Shown one piece after another: positions 25,284-42,523 of a DNA stretch of 64,000 nt. Within the stretch, counting starts at the first letter, position 1. Each line of letters begins with the position of its first letter. Source of the stretch: Akkermansiaceae bacterium (GTDB lineage: Bacteria; Verrucomicrobiota; Verrucomicrobiia; Verrucomicrobiales; Akkermansiaceae); contig CAIZNN010000264.1 in NCBI GenBank assembly GCA_903934285.1, positions 1 to 64,000 of the forward strand, written 5' to 3'. The notes under the pieces are model-generated. The model was not told the DNA's origin and ran no database searches. It saw only the letters and a program-made list of their open reading frames with translations. The position numbers were made by a program, and so were the translations under genes.

Positions 25284-26114
25284 CTAGCCTTGGGCGGTCC
25301 AGGTTCCGGTGGAGCCAACGGCGTCCCAGGTGGCGGCGGTCAGACAGATGAGCTCGACGTTTTCCCCGACGGCATCCGCCGTGAGGTACTTGCCGGCAGC
25401 GCCTTGCACGCCGCTGGATGGCAGCGCGATGGTTTCACTGCCATTGGGATCGAGGCGCAGTTCCTGCGCGGCGCGCACCACGGCGCTCACCCGCATGCCC
25501 ACGGTGGCGGCCGGCAGCGCGAAAGTCACCGCGCCGCTGGCCCCGAGGTTGGAGACGAAGATTTCGCCGTTGGCTTCCGCCGCGGTGACCGTGCGGTCGG
25601 CGGTGGCATTGGCCACCGTCGGGGTGGAGACCGCCATGGGGAAGCAATGGAGCACTTCGATTAGATCGCCATCCGCGCCGGCAGCGGTAAGCGCGCGGCC
25701 CACATGATACGATCCGGCGGCGGCGGTGGCGCTCACCTTGCCGGCGGCGTCGGTATAGACCAGCGCCCCCGCGGTGATCACGCCGCTGGCCACCATCTTC
25801 ATCGTGCCAGACTTGCTGCCGAGCAATTGGATCGCGGCGGAGTCGCCCACGGCGGGCTCATCCATGACCACGCCCAGCGGCAACGTGGCAGCCGTGTTGA
25901 CGATGAACTGGGAGCCCGGCGCGGTGCCGGTCTGCACCAGGGCGTAGCGCAGCGTGATGGCGGCGGTTTCACAGATGCGGGTGATGATCCCGGTTTCGGT
26001 GGTGCCGGTATTACCGCTCACATTGCAGACGATCTCGCGCGCGCCAAAGAGAGTTTGGGCGGCGACACAGCAGGCGAGCAGAACCGTGCTCAGGGCGTGT
26101 TTCAGTGTTTTCAT
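25284..26114 (-). CDS. Capsid cement/decoration-like (DUF2190-type) protein with leader paralogous to the MCP leader
   Basis: MKTLKHALSTVLLACCVAAQTLFGAREIVCNVSG...LPLGVVMDEPAVGDSAAIQLLGSKSGTMKMVASG. Confidence 0.6.
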   Translation of the reverse strand: MKTLKHALSTVLLACCVAAQTLFGAREIVCNVSGNTGTTETGIITRICETAAITLRYALVQTGTAPGSQFIVNTAATLPLGVVMDEPAVGDSAAIQLLGSKSGTMKMVASGVITAGALVYTDAAGKVSATAAAGSYHVGRALTAAGADGDLIEVLHCFPMAVSTPTVANATADRTVTAAEANGEIFVSNLGASGAVTFALPAATVGMRVSAVVRAAQELRLDPNGSETIALPSSGVQGAAGKYLTADAVGENVELICLTAATWDAVGSTGTWTAQG

Positions 26115-26404: not shown

Positions 26405-26445
26405 TTGATTTCGGATTTCGGATTTCGGATTTGGGATTCAGGATT
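26404..26445. repeat. Heptamer array TTTGATT TCGGATT x3 TGGGATT CAGGATT
   Basis: Exact 7-nt period between two late genes. Confidence 0.85.
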
Positions 26446-27634
26446 TCTCCACCATGGCATCCCACACCGGCTTGAGGGCGGGGTCTTTCTTGGCGAGAGC
26501 CCAGGCTTCGTGATAGGACAGGCGTTTGTCGCGCATGAGCGTTTCCACCGCATTGGCGATGGTTTCGCGGCGGCCGCGCTCGTCGCCGATTTGCACGCGG
26601 CTCTGGGTCACGTCCAGCGGCGTGGTGTTGAGCTTGGGAGCAATGGCGGCCAGGGCGTTGGCTTCCGATTCGCGGGTGTCTCCGGTGAGGCGGGCCAGCC
26701 AAGCCGGGCGTTCCGCGCCGGTGATGCGGCCGTCGGCTTGTGCAGCGTCCAGCAGCGTGTTGGCATGCGCCTCGCGGCTGGCCTGCACCGCGCTTTGCAG
26801 CGTGATGATTTTGGCGTTGGCGGCGGTGAGCGAGCAGGCAATGCCTTCCTTCTCGGTTTTTTCCGTGGCCAGCGCCGCGGTGGCGGAGTCGGCTTCGGTT
26901 TGTTTGGCCTGCGCGGCGGCCGCGCTGTCGAGCAGCGAGGTGAGGGCAGCCATGATTTCCTCATCCGTGGCAGTCACGTCGAGGCCCAGTTTGTCAGTCA
27001 GCAGTTTTCTATCCATAAGATTTGGTTGATTGGTTGATGCGCTTTCTTCCTCTTCACTCATGACGCTTGACCCATGACCCATGACTTCTTCAGAATTGGT
27101 GACGGGTTCGGAGGTGGCGATGCGGGGCGTATTGGTCAGCCCGATGGAGATGAGGCGGTCGGGCCGGAATTCTGGCCGGCCGGCGGGGGCGTCCCAGCGG
27201 GGGGATGGATAGACCCAGTAGCCTTCGCGCTGGTTTTCCTCGCCCAGGGCGTTCCAGACCACTTCGCCATAGAGGCCGTCGGGGCGGGCTTCCAAGTCGA
27301 TGGCCTTGCCGAGGCGGCGGTGATCGGTGTAGAGCGCCGGGTCTTGATCGGGATGGCCGATATATATCGGGACGCCGCGGAAAAGGCGCCCGGCGCGGCC
27401 GCGCAAGCTGCGAAACTCGGCGACGATGGCATTGGCCTCCACCTGGGTGAAATGTTGCAGCCGCCCCGGCCGCGAGCCCGGATAGGTGCCGTAGGGCGCG
27501 ATCTTCATCCAGCCGTCGGTGGTGGCGTCGTCGATCGGCGCGTCGGCCGCATTGGCCAGGGCGGCTTCGCGGGCGGGGGCGTCGTTGGCCACCGCTTCGC
27601 GCTTGCAGAGGCCGGGATGGCTGATAGGCTCCAT
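26438..27634 (-). CDS. Mu gpI-like head protease/scaffold
   Basis: MEPISHPG...WMKIAPYGTYPG...VPIYIGHPDQDPALYTDHRRLGKAIDLEARPDGLYGEVVW. Confidence 0.7.
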   Translation of the reverse strand: MEPISHPGLCKREAVANDAPAREAALANAADAPIDDATTDGWMKIAPYGTYPGSRPGRLQHFTQVEANAIVAEFRSLRGRAGRLFRGVPIYIGHPDQDPALYTDHRRLGKAIDLEARPDGLYGEVVWNALGEENQREGYWVYPSPRWDAPAGRPEFRPDRLISIGLTNTPRIATSEPVTNSEEVMGHGSSVMSEEEESASTNQPNLMDRKLLTDKLGLDVTATDEEIMAALTSLLDSAAAAQAKQTEADSATAALATEKTEKEGIACSLTAANAKIITLQSAVQASREAHANTLLDAAQADGRITGAERPAWLARLTGDTRESEANALAAIAPKLNTTPLDVTQSRVQIGDERGRRETIANAVETLMRDKRLSYHEAWALAKKDPALKPVWDAMVEKS

Positions 27635-27636
27635 GG

Positions 27637-28056
27637 ATGAACCCTTGGAACAGCATTCATCAAGAACTGGATCGCCTTCACGAAGCCGAAGCCAATAAGC
27701 GGACAATCTCGCACCGGCATCTGCGAACTGTTCCGGTGAGGGATATGAGTATTCAGGCGGTGGCTGAAGAGACACGATTGCGCTGTTTAGAATACGATCC
27801 AGAAATAGCAGCAAGCGTAGCGTCATGGCAATGGGGAGGAAGTTTTTCCACGATTTCAGAGCCGGCGCAGATGTGGCGCTATGTGCGCTTGAATTCGGCG
27901 TCGATGTGGGTTGCGATGGTATCTGACACACCACGCTGCCATCTGGTTTTTCCGCCGCCGAGGATTCCTCGCGATGCTGTGATTCGCTGGCTGTTGACGG
28001 ATTGGTGGAACCTTCACGGGATTTGGATGCGCGCTCTGATTGAACGCACCCAGTGA
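27637..28056 (+). CDS. Counter-oriented ORF (moron), unknown; candidate immunity gene
   Basis: 139-aa ORF, visibly lower GC than flanks, opposite strand inside late operon, followed by a terminator-like hairpin. Confidence 0.5.
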   Translation: MNPWNSIHQELDRLHEAEANKRTISHRHLRTVPVRDMSIQAVAEETRLRCLEYDPEIAASVASWQWGGSFSTISEPAQMWRYVRLNSASMWVAMVSDTPRCHLVFPPPRIPRDAVIRWLLTDWWNLHGIWMRALIERTQ

Positions 28057-28107
28057 GCCGCTGGAAAAATGACTTGAGGAAGTTTGGTTTCATGGTAGGT
28101 TTTGGGA

Positions 28108-28189
28108 GTCGTCCCGTCGGGCTCTTTGGAGTGCCGTGGTGAGTCCGCCAAGCCTGGCTTGCAGCAGAACTCGCGGGACGGCTTTTTTT
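28108..28189 (+). terminator. Long-loop structured terminator-like element
   Basis: GTCGTCCCG (28108-28116) pairs with CGGGACGGC (28174-28182) followed by T7; inner CAAGC(CTG)GCTTG hairpin. Confidence 0.55.
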
Positions 28190-28197
28190 GTGGGCGT

Positions 28198-30264
28198 TTA
28201 CGGGCGGTAGATGCTGAGGAGGGTGAGTTGTTTTTGTGCGGTATAAGCCTCTTCAATGATGATCGTGCGGCGGCCTTCGGAAACCTCGCTGCGCAGAACC
28301 GGTGGTTTGCCAGGGACTTCCTCCCAGAACTGCCTGGCCGGTTGGGCAAGCATCTGCGGCAGATTGCGGAAATCCTCTTCTTCAACCGGCCAGCGGTCAC
28401 CACCATGCTTGGAGAGCACCTTGTTGACCTTGTCCGCTTCCACAATGCGTTTCCATCCGGTGAGGTCGGGAGCTGGTTTGCTGTGTGGCCGCTGCCCCGC
28501 ACTCGCCAGGGTGGCTTCACGGATGCTGCGCGCCGAGGTGCTTGCGAGCTCCTCATACACCGCAAAATCCCTTGAATCCACGTCCACGAAAGCAGCGTCA
28601 AGAACCAGTTCGACGGATTCAACTTGCCGGGGTTTTGCGGGGCGTCCGGTTCCTGGCGGCCGGCTCGCCGGTTTCCATCCGTTGCGGCGGCGGGTTTCCC
28701 ACCCCTTGCGGGCTCCATTTGCATTGCCCGTATTAATCTCCTCTTCACTCTCTCCCGCCAGCGCGGCGGCAAATTGCTCACCTAACAATGCGGTGAGCGC
28801 CGGGCTGTCCATGAACTCGGGCATGCGCGCGGAGATTTTTTTCAGAGCGGCGTTCATGGCCGCCTGGTCACCGGTTTGCAGCGCGCCGAAGAGCGCGTCG
28901 CCGAGGGGCTGCAAGTCCTCTGCAAGGGCGCTGCGGATGGCGTCATGGGTGGATGGGTCATGGGTCATGGGTGTGGAGGAAGAATTCGCCACGGGCATTT
29001 CTTTCCCAGTGACCAATGACTCTTGACCAATGACCGGCGGCCGCGCCGCCGTAAGAAATTCCTCGCCCTCGCCGGCTTCCTGGATGCCGAGGCGTTCGAG
29101 CACCGCATCCTTGCTCACGCGCACGCCCATGCTCACCATGGCTTGCACGCCGGCCAGATAGGCCTGGTCATCGCGGCCCGATGGGGGCACGAGGTAAACG
29201 GCTGCCAGCGGCTCGGTGCCGCGGCCGAAGTGCCACTCGATGACCATGCGGGAGACCTCGGCGAGGGTTTCGTTGATGGTCTCCGCATCATCGGCTAGCA
29301 AGATCGATGTCTCCTTGCCCTGGAGGGATGCGCCGCTGCCCTCGCCGCTGCCGGCGCTCATGGTGGATAGATCCGCGCCGCGGTAGATCGCGGCGAACTT
29401 GCGGTCCACCCGCTCGACCACTGCGGGCATCGGCATGCCAGTTGGATTGCCAGCGGCCTGGACGATTTCCAGCGGCTTGGCGTGGGTGCCGTCGTCGCCA
29501 TAGATCACGCCGGTCCAGTCATGGCCGAAACTTTCCACCGCGGCGCGCATCGCCTCCCCTTCCGCCGAGCCCTTCTTGGCCACGGTGCGGCCGAGGATGC
29601 CGGGGACCGAAAACTTCTCCGAGAAAATGAGCCAGTCGTTGAAGGCGCCGCGCTTGGCGAGGTAGCCGATGGAGCAGGCGATCATCAGGCCGTCGCCCTG
29701 GGTGATCATCCATTCGGATGGATCGAGCATCTCGCCGCTCATGGCGAAGGGGCTGCGCAGATAGCGCAGGATGCCGGTGCGGTTTTCAAACAACCACAGC
29801 GGCACGAATTCAAAGGTGGCGCGCAGTTGACCGCGCACCGGCTGCCACACGATGTGATGGCAGGCATAGCGATAACTCACCGCGCTCATCATCTGCTTGA
29901 CCAGGCGGCGGAAGCCTCCGCGTTCGTTGCGGTCATATGCATTGACGGCGCGCACATTGTTCCAAAAATCTTCCAGCACCTCGCGATGTAACTCGCCGGC
30001 GCCTCCGGTGCCTGGCAAGGCCAGCACCTGGCGTTCGAGTTGGGAGACGTCCTTCTCGCGCTTGGGTTTCACGCTCTTGAGCGTGTCGTCGCGTTCGGCG
30101 ATGGTTTCAAACAGGATGGCACCGTCCCGCAGATAGCCGATATCGAAGGCTTCCAGCACCCGCGCCAGGCTGGCCGGCGTGAGCGAGCGCAGCGGATTGT
30201 ATTTCTGCTGCTTGAGCGTGCGCAAAGCCTCCAAGGAGGTGATGATGGGGGCGTTATTGCTCAT
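28198..30264 (-). CDS. Mu gp29-like portal protein with C-terminal PBECR-type nuclease/toxin-like domain
   Basis: N-term DUF935-like portal; C-term GWKRIVEADKVNKVLSKHGGDRWPVEEEDFRNLPQMLAQPARQFWEE...IIIEEAYTAQKQLTLLSIYRP. Confidence 0.65.
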   Translation of the reverse strand: MSNNAPIITSLEALRTLKQQKYNPLRSLTPASLARVLEAFDIGYLRDGAILFETIAERDDTLKSVKPKREKDVSQLERQVLALPGTGGAGELHREVLEDFWNNVRAVNAYDRNERGGFRRLVKQMMSAVSYRYACHHIVWQPVRGQLRATFEFVPLWLFENRTGILRYLRSPFAMSGEMLDPSEWMITQGDGLMIACSIGYLAKRGAFNDWLIFSEKFSVPGILGRTVAKKGSAEGEAMRAAVESFGHDWTGVIYGDDGTHAKPLEIVQAAGNPTGMPMPAVVERVDRKFAAIYRGADLSTMSAGSGEGSGASLQGKETSILLADDAETINETLAEVSRMVIEWHFGRGTEPLAAVYLVPPSGRDDQAYLAGVQAMVSMGVRVSKDAVLERLGIQEAGEGEEFLTAARPPVIGQESLVTGKEMPVANSSSTPMTHDPSTHDAIRSALAEDLQPLGDALFGALQTGDQAAMNAALKKISARMPEFMDSPALTALLGEQFAAALAGESEEEINTGNANGARKGWETRRRNGWKPASRPPGTGRPAKPRQVESVELVLDAAFVDVDSRDFAVYEELASTSARSIREATLASAGQRPHSKPAPDLTGWKRIVEADKVNKVLSKHGGDRWPVEEEDFRNLPQMLAQPARQFWEEVPGKPPVLRSEVSEGRRTIIIEEAYTAQKQLTLLSIYRP
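28942..29034. repeat. Two heptamer arrays inside the portal gene linker
   Basis: GTCATGG GTGGATG GGTCATG GGTCATG and CAGTGAC CAATGAC TCTTGAC CAATGAC. Confidence 0.75.
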
Positions 30265-30525: not shown

Positions 30526-32523
30526 TCATCCTGCAAAGCGCCTTTCACGCCGGGTGGTGGATTCGTAGGATTCGAACTCGACGGGAGCGCTTGGCGCGGT
30601 GGCTTGGACCAAGTGTTCGGCGATGCCCGAGTAGGCATTGGCCAGCAGCAGATGGTTGTCGCACTTGTCCACGTAGTCGCCCTTCTCGCCGTCCTTTTCC
30701 TCGCGGGCGCTGCCGGTGATGAGATGGCGTTCGAGGGTTTCGAGGATTTGCGGGCTGCCATCCACCCGGCGCGGCAGCAGCATCACCGGCTCGTCATAGA
30801 TCGCGCCGTTGTGCATCCGATAGATGTTTTCCTCCGGCGTGAGGAATTCGCAAATCACCCGGTCGATGGAATCGAAGCGCGAGCATTGGATGATGGGGAA
30901 AAACCTCGTCACTCCATCCGCTTGTTCCTGGCCTAGCTTTTGGGTGATGCCGGCGCCGGCGGATTTGGTGAACTCCACCACCGCGCAACGCAGGTTGACC
31001 CATTCGCTTTTTTCACCGTTCCATTCCAGGCCGCCTGGGAAGCGGATGCGCGAGTGCTCCGGATCCTGGACCACCGGCCACTTGATGCCGTGCAAGCCGT
31101 TGAGCAGATAGGTGAGCATGCGCGCCTCATTGACCGCCGGCCGCGCGTCGATGAAGAGCGCGCTGAGTCCCATCTTGTGGAAGAGGACCTCGGCGCGGCG
31201 CACCACATTGGCCAGCGGGATATCCTCGGCATGCACGATGCGCTTCTCCACCTCGCTGGTCACCTCGCGGGCCACGAACCAGCACGAGTTGCCCGTGTCC
31301 AGGCCGCCATAGCCGGCTGTGCCTGGGCGCAGCGAGAGGGATAGATCAAACGGTGTGCCGGCCGCGCGGCTGCGGGTGAGGATCTCAGGCGATAGGCCCT
31401 GGGTCGTGTTCTTCGGAAGCGCGAGCACTTCGCAGCAGAAGGCCACCATCGTCACCGGGTCCTTGATGGCTTTCTGCCAGCGGCTCAGCATTTGATCCAA
31501 GCCGTATGCCGCCATGCCCAGGTGCGAGAAACTGAACGACCAATCGTGCATCTCCAGGCGCTCGGGCCGCAGATGCTTTTCTATCGGCGCGCTGCGGTCG
31601 ATCACCACGCCGCTGTCCGGATCCGCCAGATAGTACATCTGCCCTGGGCGGTAGGCGTGGCGCGTCTTGTCGTCGGATTCAAAATCTCCGGAGTACGTCA
31701 GCTTCGGATCGGACGGCTGCGGCGCCGCACCCAGCTGCAAGCGGCACACCTGCGGCCAGTGATCTTCCGGGCGCAGCGTTTTACCGCCGCCCACATCGAA
31801 CACGAACACACCCTGGCTGCCGTCCTGCCATTCCCGGTTCTGGCCCGCCCCATGCAGCCGCTGCGTGCCGATGGAGATGCGGAAGCGCAGGTCGCTGGCC
31901 CCCATGCGCCCTTCCAGGTATTTGGAATACTTGGTTTTGATGTCGTCCTTCTCGTCTTCGATGGCGATGGACATTGAAAAGGTGGTGGGCACCTTGTTGA
32001 GGCCCATGACCATGCCCTCCGCCGTGCGGCTGCCGTCCTTGACCATGAACGCGCCTTTCCGATTGACCATGCGGCCGCGCTTGTCCTTGGCCTTGCCCAG
32101 CGTCATGAGCGGACCGAGGAAATCAATGCGCTCGATCACGTCCGGACGCAGCTTGCCATCCACCACGCCTTCCACCAACTCGCCATCCGGCAGATAGAGG
32201 CCGACGTTCAAAAACCGCACCCCCGTGGCATAGGCCATCAGGTTGCACTCGATGATGGTCTTGCCAATCTGCGCCCCGCCGCAAATCGACAGCTTCGCAT
32301 CCGGCAGCATTTTCCCCGTGTGCGAGCCGAGCACCAGGTCGATGACCCGCACCGCCGCCAGCAACGCCTCGCGGCCCTGGAGCGAGTACGGGGTGAAGGT
32401 GCCATCCGGCTTGCGCACTTGCGCATATTCCATCAGGAACTCCTCGAAGCTGCCGATGGCCGGCGCGCCGCCCGCGGCGCCTTGCGCCAGCCGCTCGCTC
32501 AGCTTGTGCATCGCGCCACTCAT
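30526..32523 (-). CDS. Mu gp28-like terminase large subunit
   Basis: Walker-like GGAQIGKT, position next to small terminase; ATG at 32523 overlapping upstream stop. Confidence 0.65.
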   Translation of the reverse strand: MSGAMHKLSERLAQGAAGGAPAIGSFEEFLMEYAQVRKPDGTFTPYSLQGREALLAAVRVIDLVLGSHTGKMLPDAKLSICGGAQIGKTIIECNLMAYATGVRFLNVGLYLPDGELVEGVVDGKLRPDVIERIDFLGPLMTLGKAKDKRGRMVNRKGAFMVKDGSRTAEGMVMGLNKVPTTFSMSIAIEDEKDDIKTKYSKYLEGRMGASDLRFRISIGTQRLHGAGQNREWQDGSQGVFVFDVGGGKTLRPEDHWPQVCRLQLGAAPQPSDPKLTYSGDFESDDKTRHAYRPGQMYYLADPDSGVVIDRSAPIEKHLRPERLEMHDWSFSFSHLGMAAYGLDQMLSRWQKAIKDPVTMVAFCCEVLALPKNTTQGLSPEILTRSRAAGTPFDLSLSLRPGTAGYGGLDTGNSCWFVAREVTSEVEKRIVHAEDIPLANVVRRAEVLFHKMGLSALFIDARPAVNEARMLTYLLNGLHGIKWPVVQDPEHSRIRFPGGLEWNGEKSEWVNLRCAVVEFTKSAGAGITQKLGQEQADGVTRFFPIIQCSRFDSIDRVICEFLTPEENIYRMHNGAIYDEPVMLLPRRVDGSPQILETLERHLITGSAREEKDGEKGDYVDKCDNHLLLANAYSGIAEHLVQATAPSAPVEFESYESTTRRERRFAG

Positions 32524-33056
32524 GCCTTGGCGACCGCCTCCTGCAGGTCCGTGAAAAGTTTCAATGCCTTCGGGTTGCCCTGGATCTCGGCCAGCAGCGC
32601 GTCGAGGCCCGCTTCGATCTTGGTCTTGGCCGAGGCCGCGATTTTCTCGCGCTCGATCGCCTGCTTGGAGCTCGCCAGCCGCAGCTTCGCCAGCTGCACG
32701 TAGCCACCCACATCCCCGCGTTCCAGCGTCTCCGCGGTGAAAACCGTTTGGGCCACCCGCTCGATATCCTCGGGACTGAGATCCGAGTTGCGCGCCAGCT
32801 CGATGGAGGTTTGGTTCGCCCGTTGCGCCGCCATCTCCATGCGCCGCTTGAGCGCATACCAGGCATGCCATTCCGAGAGCGTGGAGAGCGCCACGGAAAA
32901 CCGATAGGTATCCTGCACGTGCACCGCCACCGCGTCGAGCGTCCATGCCTGGGTTTCCGTATCGGCCGGATGCATCAGCAGCCAGATGGCCTCCATCTCC
33001 GCTTCCGGAAGATTTTTGAGCTTGCTGTCCGCCCGCGGCTTTTTGATTTTGATCAT
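32520..33056 (-). CDS. Mu gp27-like (DUF3486-type) terminase small subunit
   Basis: 178 aa, HTH-like N-term LPEAEMEAIWLLMHPADTETQAWTLDAVAVHV, helical C-term. Confidence 0.55.
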   Translation of the reverse strand: MIKIKKPRADSKLKNLPEAEMEAIWLLMHPADTETQAWTLDAVAVHVQDTYRFSVALSTLSEWHAWYALKRRMEMAAQRANQTSIELARNSDLSPEDIERVAQTVFTAETLERGDVGGYVQLAKLRLASSKQAIEREKIAASAKTKIEAGLDALLAEIQGNPKALKLFTDLQEAVAKA

Positions 33057-33323
33057 TCACGTCAGGGATTTTTGTTGGGCCACGCCGGCGGGGGTGATGT
33101 ACCACAGGACCGTCTCGCTCTCGGGGTCGTATTCGCTGCGGATATAGGCGCGATCGTGGTTGTATTCCATGGCATCGCGCAGCTCCTGGAGCGAGACGTT
33201 GCCGCCGGTGAGCTCGTGGACGTATTCCAGCAGCAGGCCCTCGGCTTTGCCGTAGCCCGGCGCCATGTTGAGCACCTCGCGCACCTTGCGCCGCACCATT
33301 GCTTTGGAGTGGATCGGATTCAT
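33057..33323 (-). CDS. Mu gp26-like small phage protein
   Basis: 88 aa; MVRRKVREVLNMAPGYGKAEGLLLEYVHELTGG. Confidence 0.5.
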   Translation of the reverse strand: MNPIHSKAMVRRKVREVLNMAPGYGKAEGLLLEYVHELTGGNVSLQELRDAMEYNHDRAYIRSEYDPESETVLWYITPAGVAQQKSLT

Positions 33324-41131: not shown

Positions 41132-42523
41132 ATGTCCAAAAAACTCTCCTCCTGGCAACGCGAGCGCGTCGGCATCCTGCACACCGCCTTCAGCGCGCTT
41201 GCAGCCAGCATGCAGACGGAAGGCACTCCGTTGGTGGCCAGCCTGGAAGCGCTCCAACTGCGGCTCGACGGGCAAGCCCTCGGCGACGGCAAGCACCATC
41301 TGCGGGCCAGCGTCAAAACCTTGGTGCGGCTCTGGTATCAATGGGACAAGGGCGGCCGCAAGGGCCCCGCACTGGTCCATCAGCACGCCTCGCCCAAGCA
41401 CGTGCACATGCTGCCGGATCGCCTGGTGGCGGAAGTGCAGCGGCTGGCCAGCGTGGAAAGCGGCGGCACGGACAAGCACCAGAATGGCGTGGAATGCGCC
41501 GCCATCCATAAGCAGCTGGCCCGCCGCTGGTTCGACGGTGAGAAATTGCCGGGCATCGGCACCTGGCAGGAATGGTGGGCCGCGCGCCATCCCACGCTGC
41601 CGCATCCGACCATCATTCCGGACTTCCCCTGGTGTGCGCGCACCATCGCGCGGGCCAGCGGCTGCAAGGCGCTCAAGCGCTGGGGCAACATCGGCCGCGC
41701 CGCGGCTAACAAACATTTGCCCAGCATGGACCGGGACTACTCCAAGCTGCGCCGCTGCGAGTTCTACACCCTCGATGACGTGCGGCTCGACGTGGCCGCC
41801 ATCGACGAAATCACCGGCCGGGTGGTGGAAGTCATGGCTTATGTTCTAATGGAACTCTCCAGCCGTTGCATCGTGGCCTTCGTGGTCAAGCCGGTGGACG
41901 CGATCAAGGCGGAGGATGTCGATGAATTATTGGGCCACGGCCTGCAAGCGGACGGCTACGGCGTGGGCGTGGGCTATCAGACCCATATCTGGTTCGAGCG
42001 CGGCACCGTGGCATGCAGCACGCGTGCCCAACACGTGCTGGAAACCTTCTCCGATGGCGCGATCAAAATCCACCGCACCTCCATGGATGGGGGCGTGCGC
42101 TGGGTGGGTGCAGCCGCGGACCGCGCCAGCGGCCACTCCGCCGGCAAGGCGGCCCTCGAATCCTTCAACCGCAACCTGCACCGCCGGCTGCGCCATCTGC
42201 CAGGCCAACGCGGCAATAACTTCTCCAACCAACCGGCCAACCTCGGCGTGGGCGAGCGCTCCGCCAAAGACCCATCCAAAAGCGAGCGGCGCACCCTCAA
42301 AGCGGAAGCCGAACGCATCGCCCAGTTCAAACTCACAGCCATGGCGGCCGGCGCGGACGCGCGGGTAAAGCTGCCGCTGTGCACATGCAGCGAAATCCAC
42401 CGCCACGTGGCCGCCGCCGTCACCGCCCACAATATCGAGCGCGGCCACTCCATGCAGGGATTCCACCGCGTGCGGGAAGCGGAAATAGCCCCCGGCGTGT
42501 GGCGGGAAGTGGACTCTTACTAA
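41132..42523 (+). CDS. MuA-like transposase, catalytic (rve/DDE) part
   Basis: LDVAAIDEITGRVVEVMAYVLMELSSRCIVAF...ADRASGHSAGKAALESFNRNLHRRLRHLPGQRGNN. Confidence 0.75.
   Translation: MSKKLSSWQRERVGILHTAFSALAASMQTEGTPLVASLEALQLRLDGQALGDGKHHLRASVKTLVRLWYQWDKGGRKGPALVHQHASPKHVHMLPDRLVAEVQRLASVESGGTDKHQNGVECAAIHKQLARRWFDGEKLPGIGTWQEWWAARHPTLPHPTIIPDFPWCARTIARASGCKALKRWGNIGRAAANKHLPSMDRDYSKLRRCEFYTLDDVRLDVAAIDEITGRVVEVMAYVLMELSSRCIVAFVVKPVDAIKAEDVDELLGHGLQADGYGVGVGYQTHIWFERGTVACSTRAQHVLETFSDGAIKIHRTSMDGGVRWVGAAADRASGHSAGKAALESFNRNLHRRLRHLPGQRGNNFSNQPANLGVGERSAKDPSKSERRTLKAEAERIAQFKLTAMAAGADARVKLPLCTCSEIHRHVAAAVTAHNIERGHSMQGFHRVREAEIAPGVWREVDSY

What the first reader, a model, noticed from the sequence alone, without database searches (positions are those of the whole stretch)
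28108..30264. Portal protein carrying a C-terminal PBECR-type nuclease-like (virion-delivered effector) domain
Seen: a 688-aa Mu gp29-like portal whose last ~90 aa (GWKRIVEADKVNKVLSKHGG...IIIEEAYTAQKQLTLLSIYRP) lie after a low-complexity basic linker and are unlike a portal. Known: PBECR (phage Barnase-EndoU-ColicinE5/D-RelE-like) domains are described fused to phage head/portal/MuF proteins. Inference: this phage packages an RNase-like effector that may be injected with DNA or used against co-infecting phage.
Basis: partly seen in the sequence, partly recalled or inferred. Interest (0 to 1): 0.82.

Follow-up and report, generated by a model that had tools for sequence, protein, structure and literature searches.

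The report
Phage portal carrying exchangeable RNase-like cargo
The ring protein through which this Mu-like phage packs its DNA carries at its end a small domain shaped like bacterial RNA-cutting toxins, and close relatives of the phage carry a different such domain, or none, at the same spot, so the portal looks like a holder for swappable weapons that may be delivered with the phage DNA.

Summary
The query domain itself has no Pfam match, but an independent profile comparison ties its subfamily to PBECR3 (hhalign 98.6%). AlphaFold gives a confident model (pLDDT 89). Its nearest solved structures are mostly RNase toxins: BrnT, HigB, RelE. The helix His (H620) and last-strand Ser (S684) of PBECR enzymes are kept. 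New here: in this portal lineage the C-terminus is a cargo site. Relatives carry PBECR1, PBECR2, PBECR3 or nothing, and six sister pairs (61-82% identical) differ in presence of cargo. No MuF gene lies between portal and protease, and no immunity ORF follows. In phage Mu the corresponding C-terminal part of the portal is missing from the virion structure, attributed to cleavage by the protease whose homologue is the next gene here. This suggests how the domain could be freed inside the head. Packaging, release, injection and RNase activity are inferred, not shown. PBECR-portal fusions were reported in 2017, so this is a new variant of a known kind.

The parts
28198..30264 (-). portal + C-terminal cargo gene, 688 aa, intact ORF
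   Evidence: PF06074, phrog_113 portal
29083..30114 (-). Mu-type portal domain, residues 51-394
   Evidence: PF06074 E 4.2e-45; high-confidence part of the full-length model
28735..29124 (-). helical portal C-terminus, residues ~381-510; corresponds to the last 124 residues of Mu gp29 that are missing from the Mu virion structure
   Evidence: alignment with Mu gp29; PMC11915804; helices 437-506 in the model
28612..28734 (-). basic linker, residues 511-551 (GNANGARKGWETRRRNGWKPASRPPGTGRPAKPRQ...)
   Evidence: pLDDT ~30; replaced by other linker motifs in relatives
28201..28458 (-). PBECR3-like BECR-fold domain, residues 603-688
   Evidence: hhalign to PBECR3 set 98.6%; AlphaFold pLDDT 89.4 for 551-688; Foldseek top hits BrnT, HigB2
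28405..28407 (-). His620, last residue of the first core helix, invariant in 16 PBECR3-type sequences
28213..28215 (-). Ser684 in the last strand (LLSIYR), aligned with S/T of PBECR3 (TSMWK)
28094..28197 (-). 104-nt non-coding gap that can fold into a three-way junction; no immunity ORF
26438..28093 (-). Mu protease I-like head maturation protease, directly downstream
   Evidence: PF10123 E 1.7e-16, phrog_328
30526..33105 (-). terminase large subunit, upstream
   Evidence: phrog_675
25284..26114 (-). cement/decoration protein
   Evidence: PF09956
24075..25169 (-). major capsid protein
   Evidence: phrog_1005
41132..42523 (+). transposase of the Mu-like prophage
   Evidence: phrog_310 E 2e-12

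Best explanation
The gene encodes the portal of a Mu-like prophage whose C-terminus is used as a cargo site. Here the cargo is a divergent PBECR3-type, BECR-fold metal-independent RNase domain with an intact predicted active site (His620, Ser684). Likely mechanism: twelve copies enter the procapsid with the portal ring, C-termini towards the lumen. The Mu I-like protease encoded next door cuts in the portal C-terminal region, as inferred for Mu, freeing the domain inside the head. It then leaves with the DNA and cuts RNA in the newly infected cell, such as host mRNA or the RNA of a defence system. Shown here: the domain, its predicted fold, the kept residues, the exchange of cargo among relatives, the gene order, absence of MuF in this operon, absence of a downstream immunity ORF. 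Inferred: packaging, cleavage, ejection, RNase activity and target.
For: Profile link of the portal-tail subfamily to PBECR3 built from non-overlapping sequences (98.6%). The two orthologous tails hit PBECR3 at 22-24 bits. AlphaFold pLDDT 89.4/pTM 0.83; Foldseek top PDB hits BrnT, HigB2 and a Salmonella toxin-antitoxin complex, probability up to 0.95; viral hits are polyvalent 'Nuclease' proteins, E 3e-6. H620 and D631 invariant and S684 aligned with S/T in most of 16 sequences. Relatives carry PBECR1, PBECR2 (most over the Pfam cut-off) or PBECR3 at the same site. Tree of 50 portals: five PBECR3 rows need five changes; sister pairs window/L036, L002/L003, L005/L040, L007/L050, L033/L035, L027/L026 differ in cargo, the pairs being 61-82% identical. 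Mu gp29: last 124 residues absent from the virion structure, attributed to protease I (PMC11915804); they map to residues ~381-510 here, just before the cargo. PBECR fusions to portal and MuF known from comparative genomics (PMC5512222).
Against: The query alone has no Pfam hit at E<=1. No Foldseek PDB hit reaches E 0.001 and query-normalised TM-scores of the top hits are 0.33-0.41, so the fold is BECR-like but divergent. The first helix His of many PBECR3 (RHxxKxHG) is Lys615 here. If the portal is not cleaved, the domain stays on the ring and cannot be injected; if it is cleaved, the fragment could be lost or degraded. No experiment exists for this phage.
Confidence: 0.6

Rival explanations
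1. The domain has the PBECR fold but is a non-catalytic structural or nucleic-acid-binding module, as proposed for the MuF-C domain of Mu gp30, used in head assembly or DNA piloting.
For: Mu and Pseudomonas Mu-like gp30 end in a related domain without the helix His (PMC5512222 calls Mu's version inactive); a 26-residue stretch aligns with this domain in hhalign (58.7%). The phage has no MuF gene in this operon, so the portal tail might replace a MuF-C function.
Against: His620 and Ser684 are kept in three portal-borne copies, the other two only 34 and 43% identical to this one. Sister portals lack the domain entirely, so it is dispensable for assembly. Similarity to active-type PBECR3 is much stronger than to MuF-C.
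Confidence: 0.15
2. The RNase acts in the producing cell, late in the lytic cycle, for example to degrade host or early phage mRNA, and the protease later removes it; nothing is delivered to the next cell.
For: No immunity ORF, so the producer is not obviously protected. BECR enzymes such as phage RegB act on mRNA in the infected cell (PMC5512222). The cargo sits in the part of the portal that Mu is inferred to lose.
Against: Fusion to the portal is an odd choice for a soluble cytosolic enzyme; related domains recur on MuF and other large phage proteins, which fits packaging better.
Confidence: 0.2
3. The tail is an ordinary portal extension or a chance read-through into the intergenic region.
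For: No Pfam or PHROG hit for residues 540-688 alone.
Against: Homologous tails at 34-43% identity with conserved residues, confident independent fold, several different domains at the same site in relatives.
Confidence: 0.02

Closest known systems
PBECR domains fused to portal or MuF in phages (Iyer et al. 2017, PMC5512222; Pfam PBECR1 PF18809, PBECR2 PF18810, PBECR3 PF18812)
   Same: BECR fold, helix His plus last-strand Ser/Thr, C-terminal fusion to a head protein in the packaging module
   Different: This copy is below the Pfam cut-off; the exchange of PBECR1/2/3/none on one portal lineage is not described in the passages of that paper read here; the protease gene follows the portal directly with no MuF
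MuF polymorphic toxins of temperate phages (Jamet et al. 2017, PMC5576092; Bxa, PMC11699363)
   Different: Carrier is the portal, not MuF; no small immunity ORF downstream (89% of MuF toxin genes have one); all assignable terminal cargo is PBECR-type
Phage Mu portal gp29 and MuF gp30
   Same: Homologous portal, same protease I family downstream; gp30 ends in a PBECR-related MuF_C domain
   Different: Mu gp29 has no cargo; Mu's PBECR-like domain is on gp30 and lacks the His

Membership tests
PBECR3 (PF18812) | HMM match over the gathering score (30 bits) | tested here: not met
   Query: no hit at E<=1. Orthologous tails 22.4 and 24.1 bits; portal tails of L005 and L007 pass (57.9, 39.6).
PBECR3 (PF18812) | Significant profile-profile relation to PBECR3 sequences | tested here: met
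   hhalign A5 vs A4, 98.6%, E 9e-16 for the pairwise comparison, alignment over the whole domain
[quoted passage not shown]
   Model with helix 610-620 and strands 644-650, 653-663, 665-674, 679-686; Foldseek top hits BrnT, HigB2, though E 0.03
PBECR clade (BECR fold) | Helix His plus C-terminal Ser/Thr | tested here: met
   H620 invariant in 16 sequences, S684 aligned with TSMWK
PBECR clade (BECR fold) | RNase activity | not testable with these tools
   needs an assay
Mu-type portal (PF06074) | HMM match over cut-off and position between terminase and protease | tested here: met
   155 bits vs 23.9; neighbours
MuF polymorphic toxins | MuF domain in the carrier protein | tested here: not met
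   No PF04233 in the protein; the only PF04233 hit of the genome is on another contig
MuF polymorphic toxins | Small immunity ORF directly downstream | tested here: not met
   Protease starts 104 nt after the stop codon; nearest relatives likewise have the protease next
Polymorphic toxin-like organisation | Conserved N-terminal carrier with exchanged C-terminal domains | tested here: met
   Tree and tail census

The most novel reading that the evidence does not exclude
In MuF-less Mu-like phages the portal itself is a polymorphic effector carrier: 12 copies per virion of an interchangeable RNase are cut loose by the head protease and injected. The exchanged cassette includes not only the domain but also a structured ~100-nt RNA downstream, which restrains the RNase or its synthesis in the producing cell in place of an immunity protein.
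Probability: 0.1. Interest if true: 0.8.

Novelty: new variant of a known kind. Interest (0 to 1): 0.5.

Why it matters
It shows a portal, a 12-copy and normally conserved machine part, used as a carrier for fast-changing RNase-like cargo. Combined with the inferred protease cleavage of the Mu portal, it gives a concrete and testable route by which a phage could load and release an effector inside its head. Sister phages with and without cargo on 60-80% identical portals are ready-made natural controls for asking what virion-borne PBECR domains do.

Tried and rejected
Direct Pfam and PHROG scans of the tail: nothing. Sequence search of the PDB with the tail alignment: no meaningful hit. Genome-contig scans for the portal and for one tail: no confirmed relatives. 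ARKGWETRR as a specific cargo-junction motif: rejected, it occurs in many unrelated phage proteins. MuF_C as the closest family: only a short partial alignment. A separate MuF gene in this phage: none in the portal operon. A dispersed genomic repeat or Rfam family for the structured gap: no. A small-sample shuffle test on cargo clustering gave no evidence of inheritance by descent for PBECR3 (5 changes, shuffled mean 4.9), which fits frequent exchange but rests on few rows. MAFFT could not align the two structured gaps, so no covariance model was built.

Full report
Check of the observation. Its range starts 90 nt too low, inside the gap before the next gene. Residues 51-394 are a Mu-type portal (PF06074, E 4e-45). 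The gene lies between a terminase large subunit and a Mu I-like head protease, followed by cement and major capsid genes, in a prophage that also has a Mu-type transposase. Base composition changes little across the junction (core 63% G+C, tail 61%).

What the tail is. Pfam and PHROGs find nothing in the tail itself. Searches of related genomes found two other portals with the same tail: L006 (41% identity over residues 453-688) and L033 (the same sequence as the viral contig L081). Both hit PBECR3 just below its cut-off (22.4 and 24.1 of 30 bits). A profile of these three tails aligned over the whole domain with a profile of five PBECR3 domains that shares no sequence with it (98.6%). Sixteen sequences keep one His (H620) and one Asp (D631), and most keep the Ser/Thr of the last strand (S684 here). 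The earlier His of the RHxxKxHG pattern is Lys here, as in another PBECR3 protein (L083), so it is not obligatory. AlphaFold gives a confident fold (pLDDT 89.4, pTM 0.83). Foldseek ranks BrnT and HigB2 first in the PDB, with RelE proteins further down the list (probabilities to 0.95, but E-values about 0.03 and TM-scores mostly 0.3-0.4), and phage polyvalent 'nuclease' proteins first among viral models. H620 ends the first helix of the core and S684 sits in the last strand, the arrangement given for PBECR enzymes (PMC5512222). I conclude: BECR fold, PBECR3-like, predicted active, not formally a Pfam PBECR3 member.

Exchange of cargo. Among portals of this lineage collected from viral contigs and related genomes, most end right after the helical portal C-terminus. 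Others continue through a linker into PBECR3 (window, L006, L033, L005, L007), PBECR1 (L001, L002, L027; L063 below cut-off; L067 cut by its contig end and assigned by eye) or PBECR2 (L046; in more distant portals L013, L030), with one unknown (L029). On a tree of 50 portal cores every PBECR3 row is separate (5 rows, 5 changes), and six well-supported sister pairs differ in presence of cargo, though their portals are 61-82% identical (the L027/L026 pair over a partial stretch). The closest relative of the window's portal (L036, ~70%) has none. Linker motifs (GWETRR-type, GHPFRGNQ-type, NPYHD..GRF-type) mix freely with cargo types. The tree was a quick search with some long branches and the rows are few, so rates are rough, but the sister pairs do not depend on deep branches.

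Surroundings. In this clade the protease follows the portal directly: no MuF gene and no small immunity ORF. The only MuF-domain hit of the genome is on another contig. A more distant relative (L070) shows the ordinary layout, a separate MuF protein ending in a PBECR2-like domain. Mu and Pseudomonas Mu-like phages end gp30 in a related domain lacking the His.

Mechanism. [quoted passage not shown] Those residues map to about 381-510 here, so the cargo is attached to the very part that Mu is inferred to lose. In the full-length model the portal body, the helical segment and the tail are separate units joined by low-confidence linkers. The most economical route is: procapsid entry with the portal, cleavage next to or within the helical segment, retention in the head, exit with DNA, RNA cleavage in the new cell. 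Only the anatomy is shown; every later step is inference. A role in the producing cell, or a non-catalytic role like that proposed for Mu's MuF-C, remains possible.

Novelty. PBECR-portal fusions and MuF polymorphic toxins are published (PMC5512222, PMC5576092, PMC11699363). What I did not find described in the passages read or in paper searches is a portal lineage that swaps PBECR1, PBECR2, PBECR3 or nothing at one site, without MuF and without immunity genes. Figures and subscription papers were not available, so this is a statement about what could be searched.

Noticed in passing
window 28094-28197 (-); L006, L001, L046 gaps: The gap between portal and protease is long (76-157 nt) after seven of nine scorable cargo-bearing portals and mostly under 30 nt after cargo-less ones (Mann-Whitney p 2e-4, not corrected for kinship; the L002 gap assumes a downstream start codon), and in four of five folded cases it folds better than shuffles (z -1.95 to -3.3). 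The window and L006 gaps share a three-way-junction shape (1 of 300 shuffles as close) despite different stem sequences.
   Followed up: partly
L126-L205 (IMG/VR): The peptide GHPFRGNQW, the linker of the L006 portal (near-identical in L002 and L046), recurs up to six times per locus in phage multidomain proteins, in front of ART-PolyVal, ADP-ribosyltransferase, topoisomerase IB, HipA_C, Ntox1 and other domains; no paper in the library contains its core GHPFRGNQ.
   Followed up: partly
L022, L033, L035 (genome G182): One bacterial genome holds three related portals, one with the PBECR3 cargo and two without.
   Followed up: no
L011, L015: Distant portals carry an internal domain that by eye resembles ParB-like domains between portal core and C-terminal helices.
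   Followed up: no
L029 841-2988; L048: A C-terminal tail (L029) and an internal insert (L048) without any Pfam match at positions used for cargo: possible new effector domains.
   Followed up: no
window 41132-42523 (+): Mu-type transposase on the strand opposite to the structural genes, unlike the one-directional layout of Mu (Mu layout from own knowledge).
   Followed up: no
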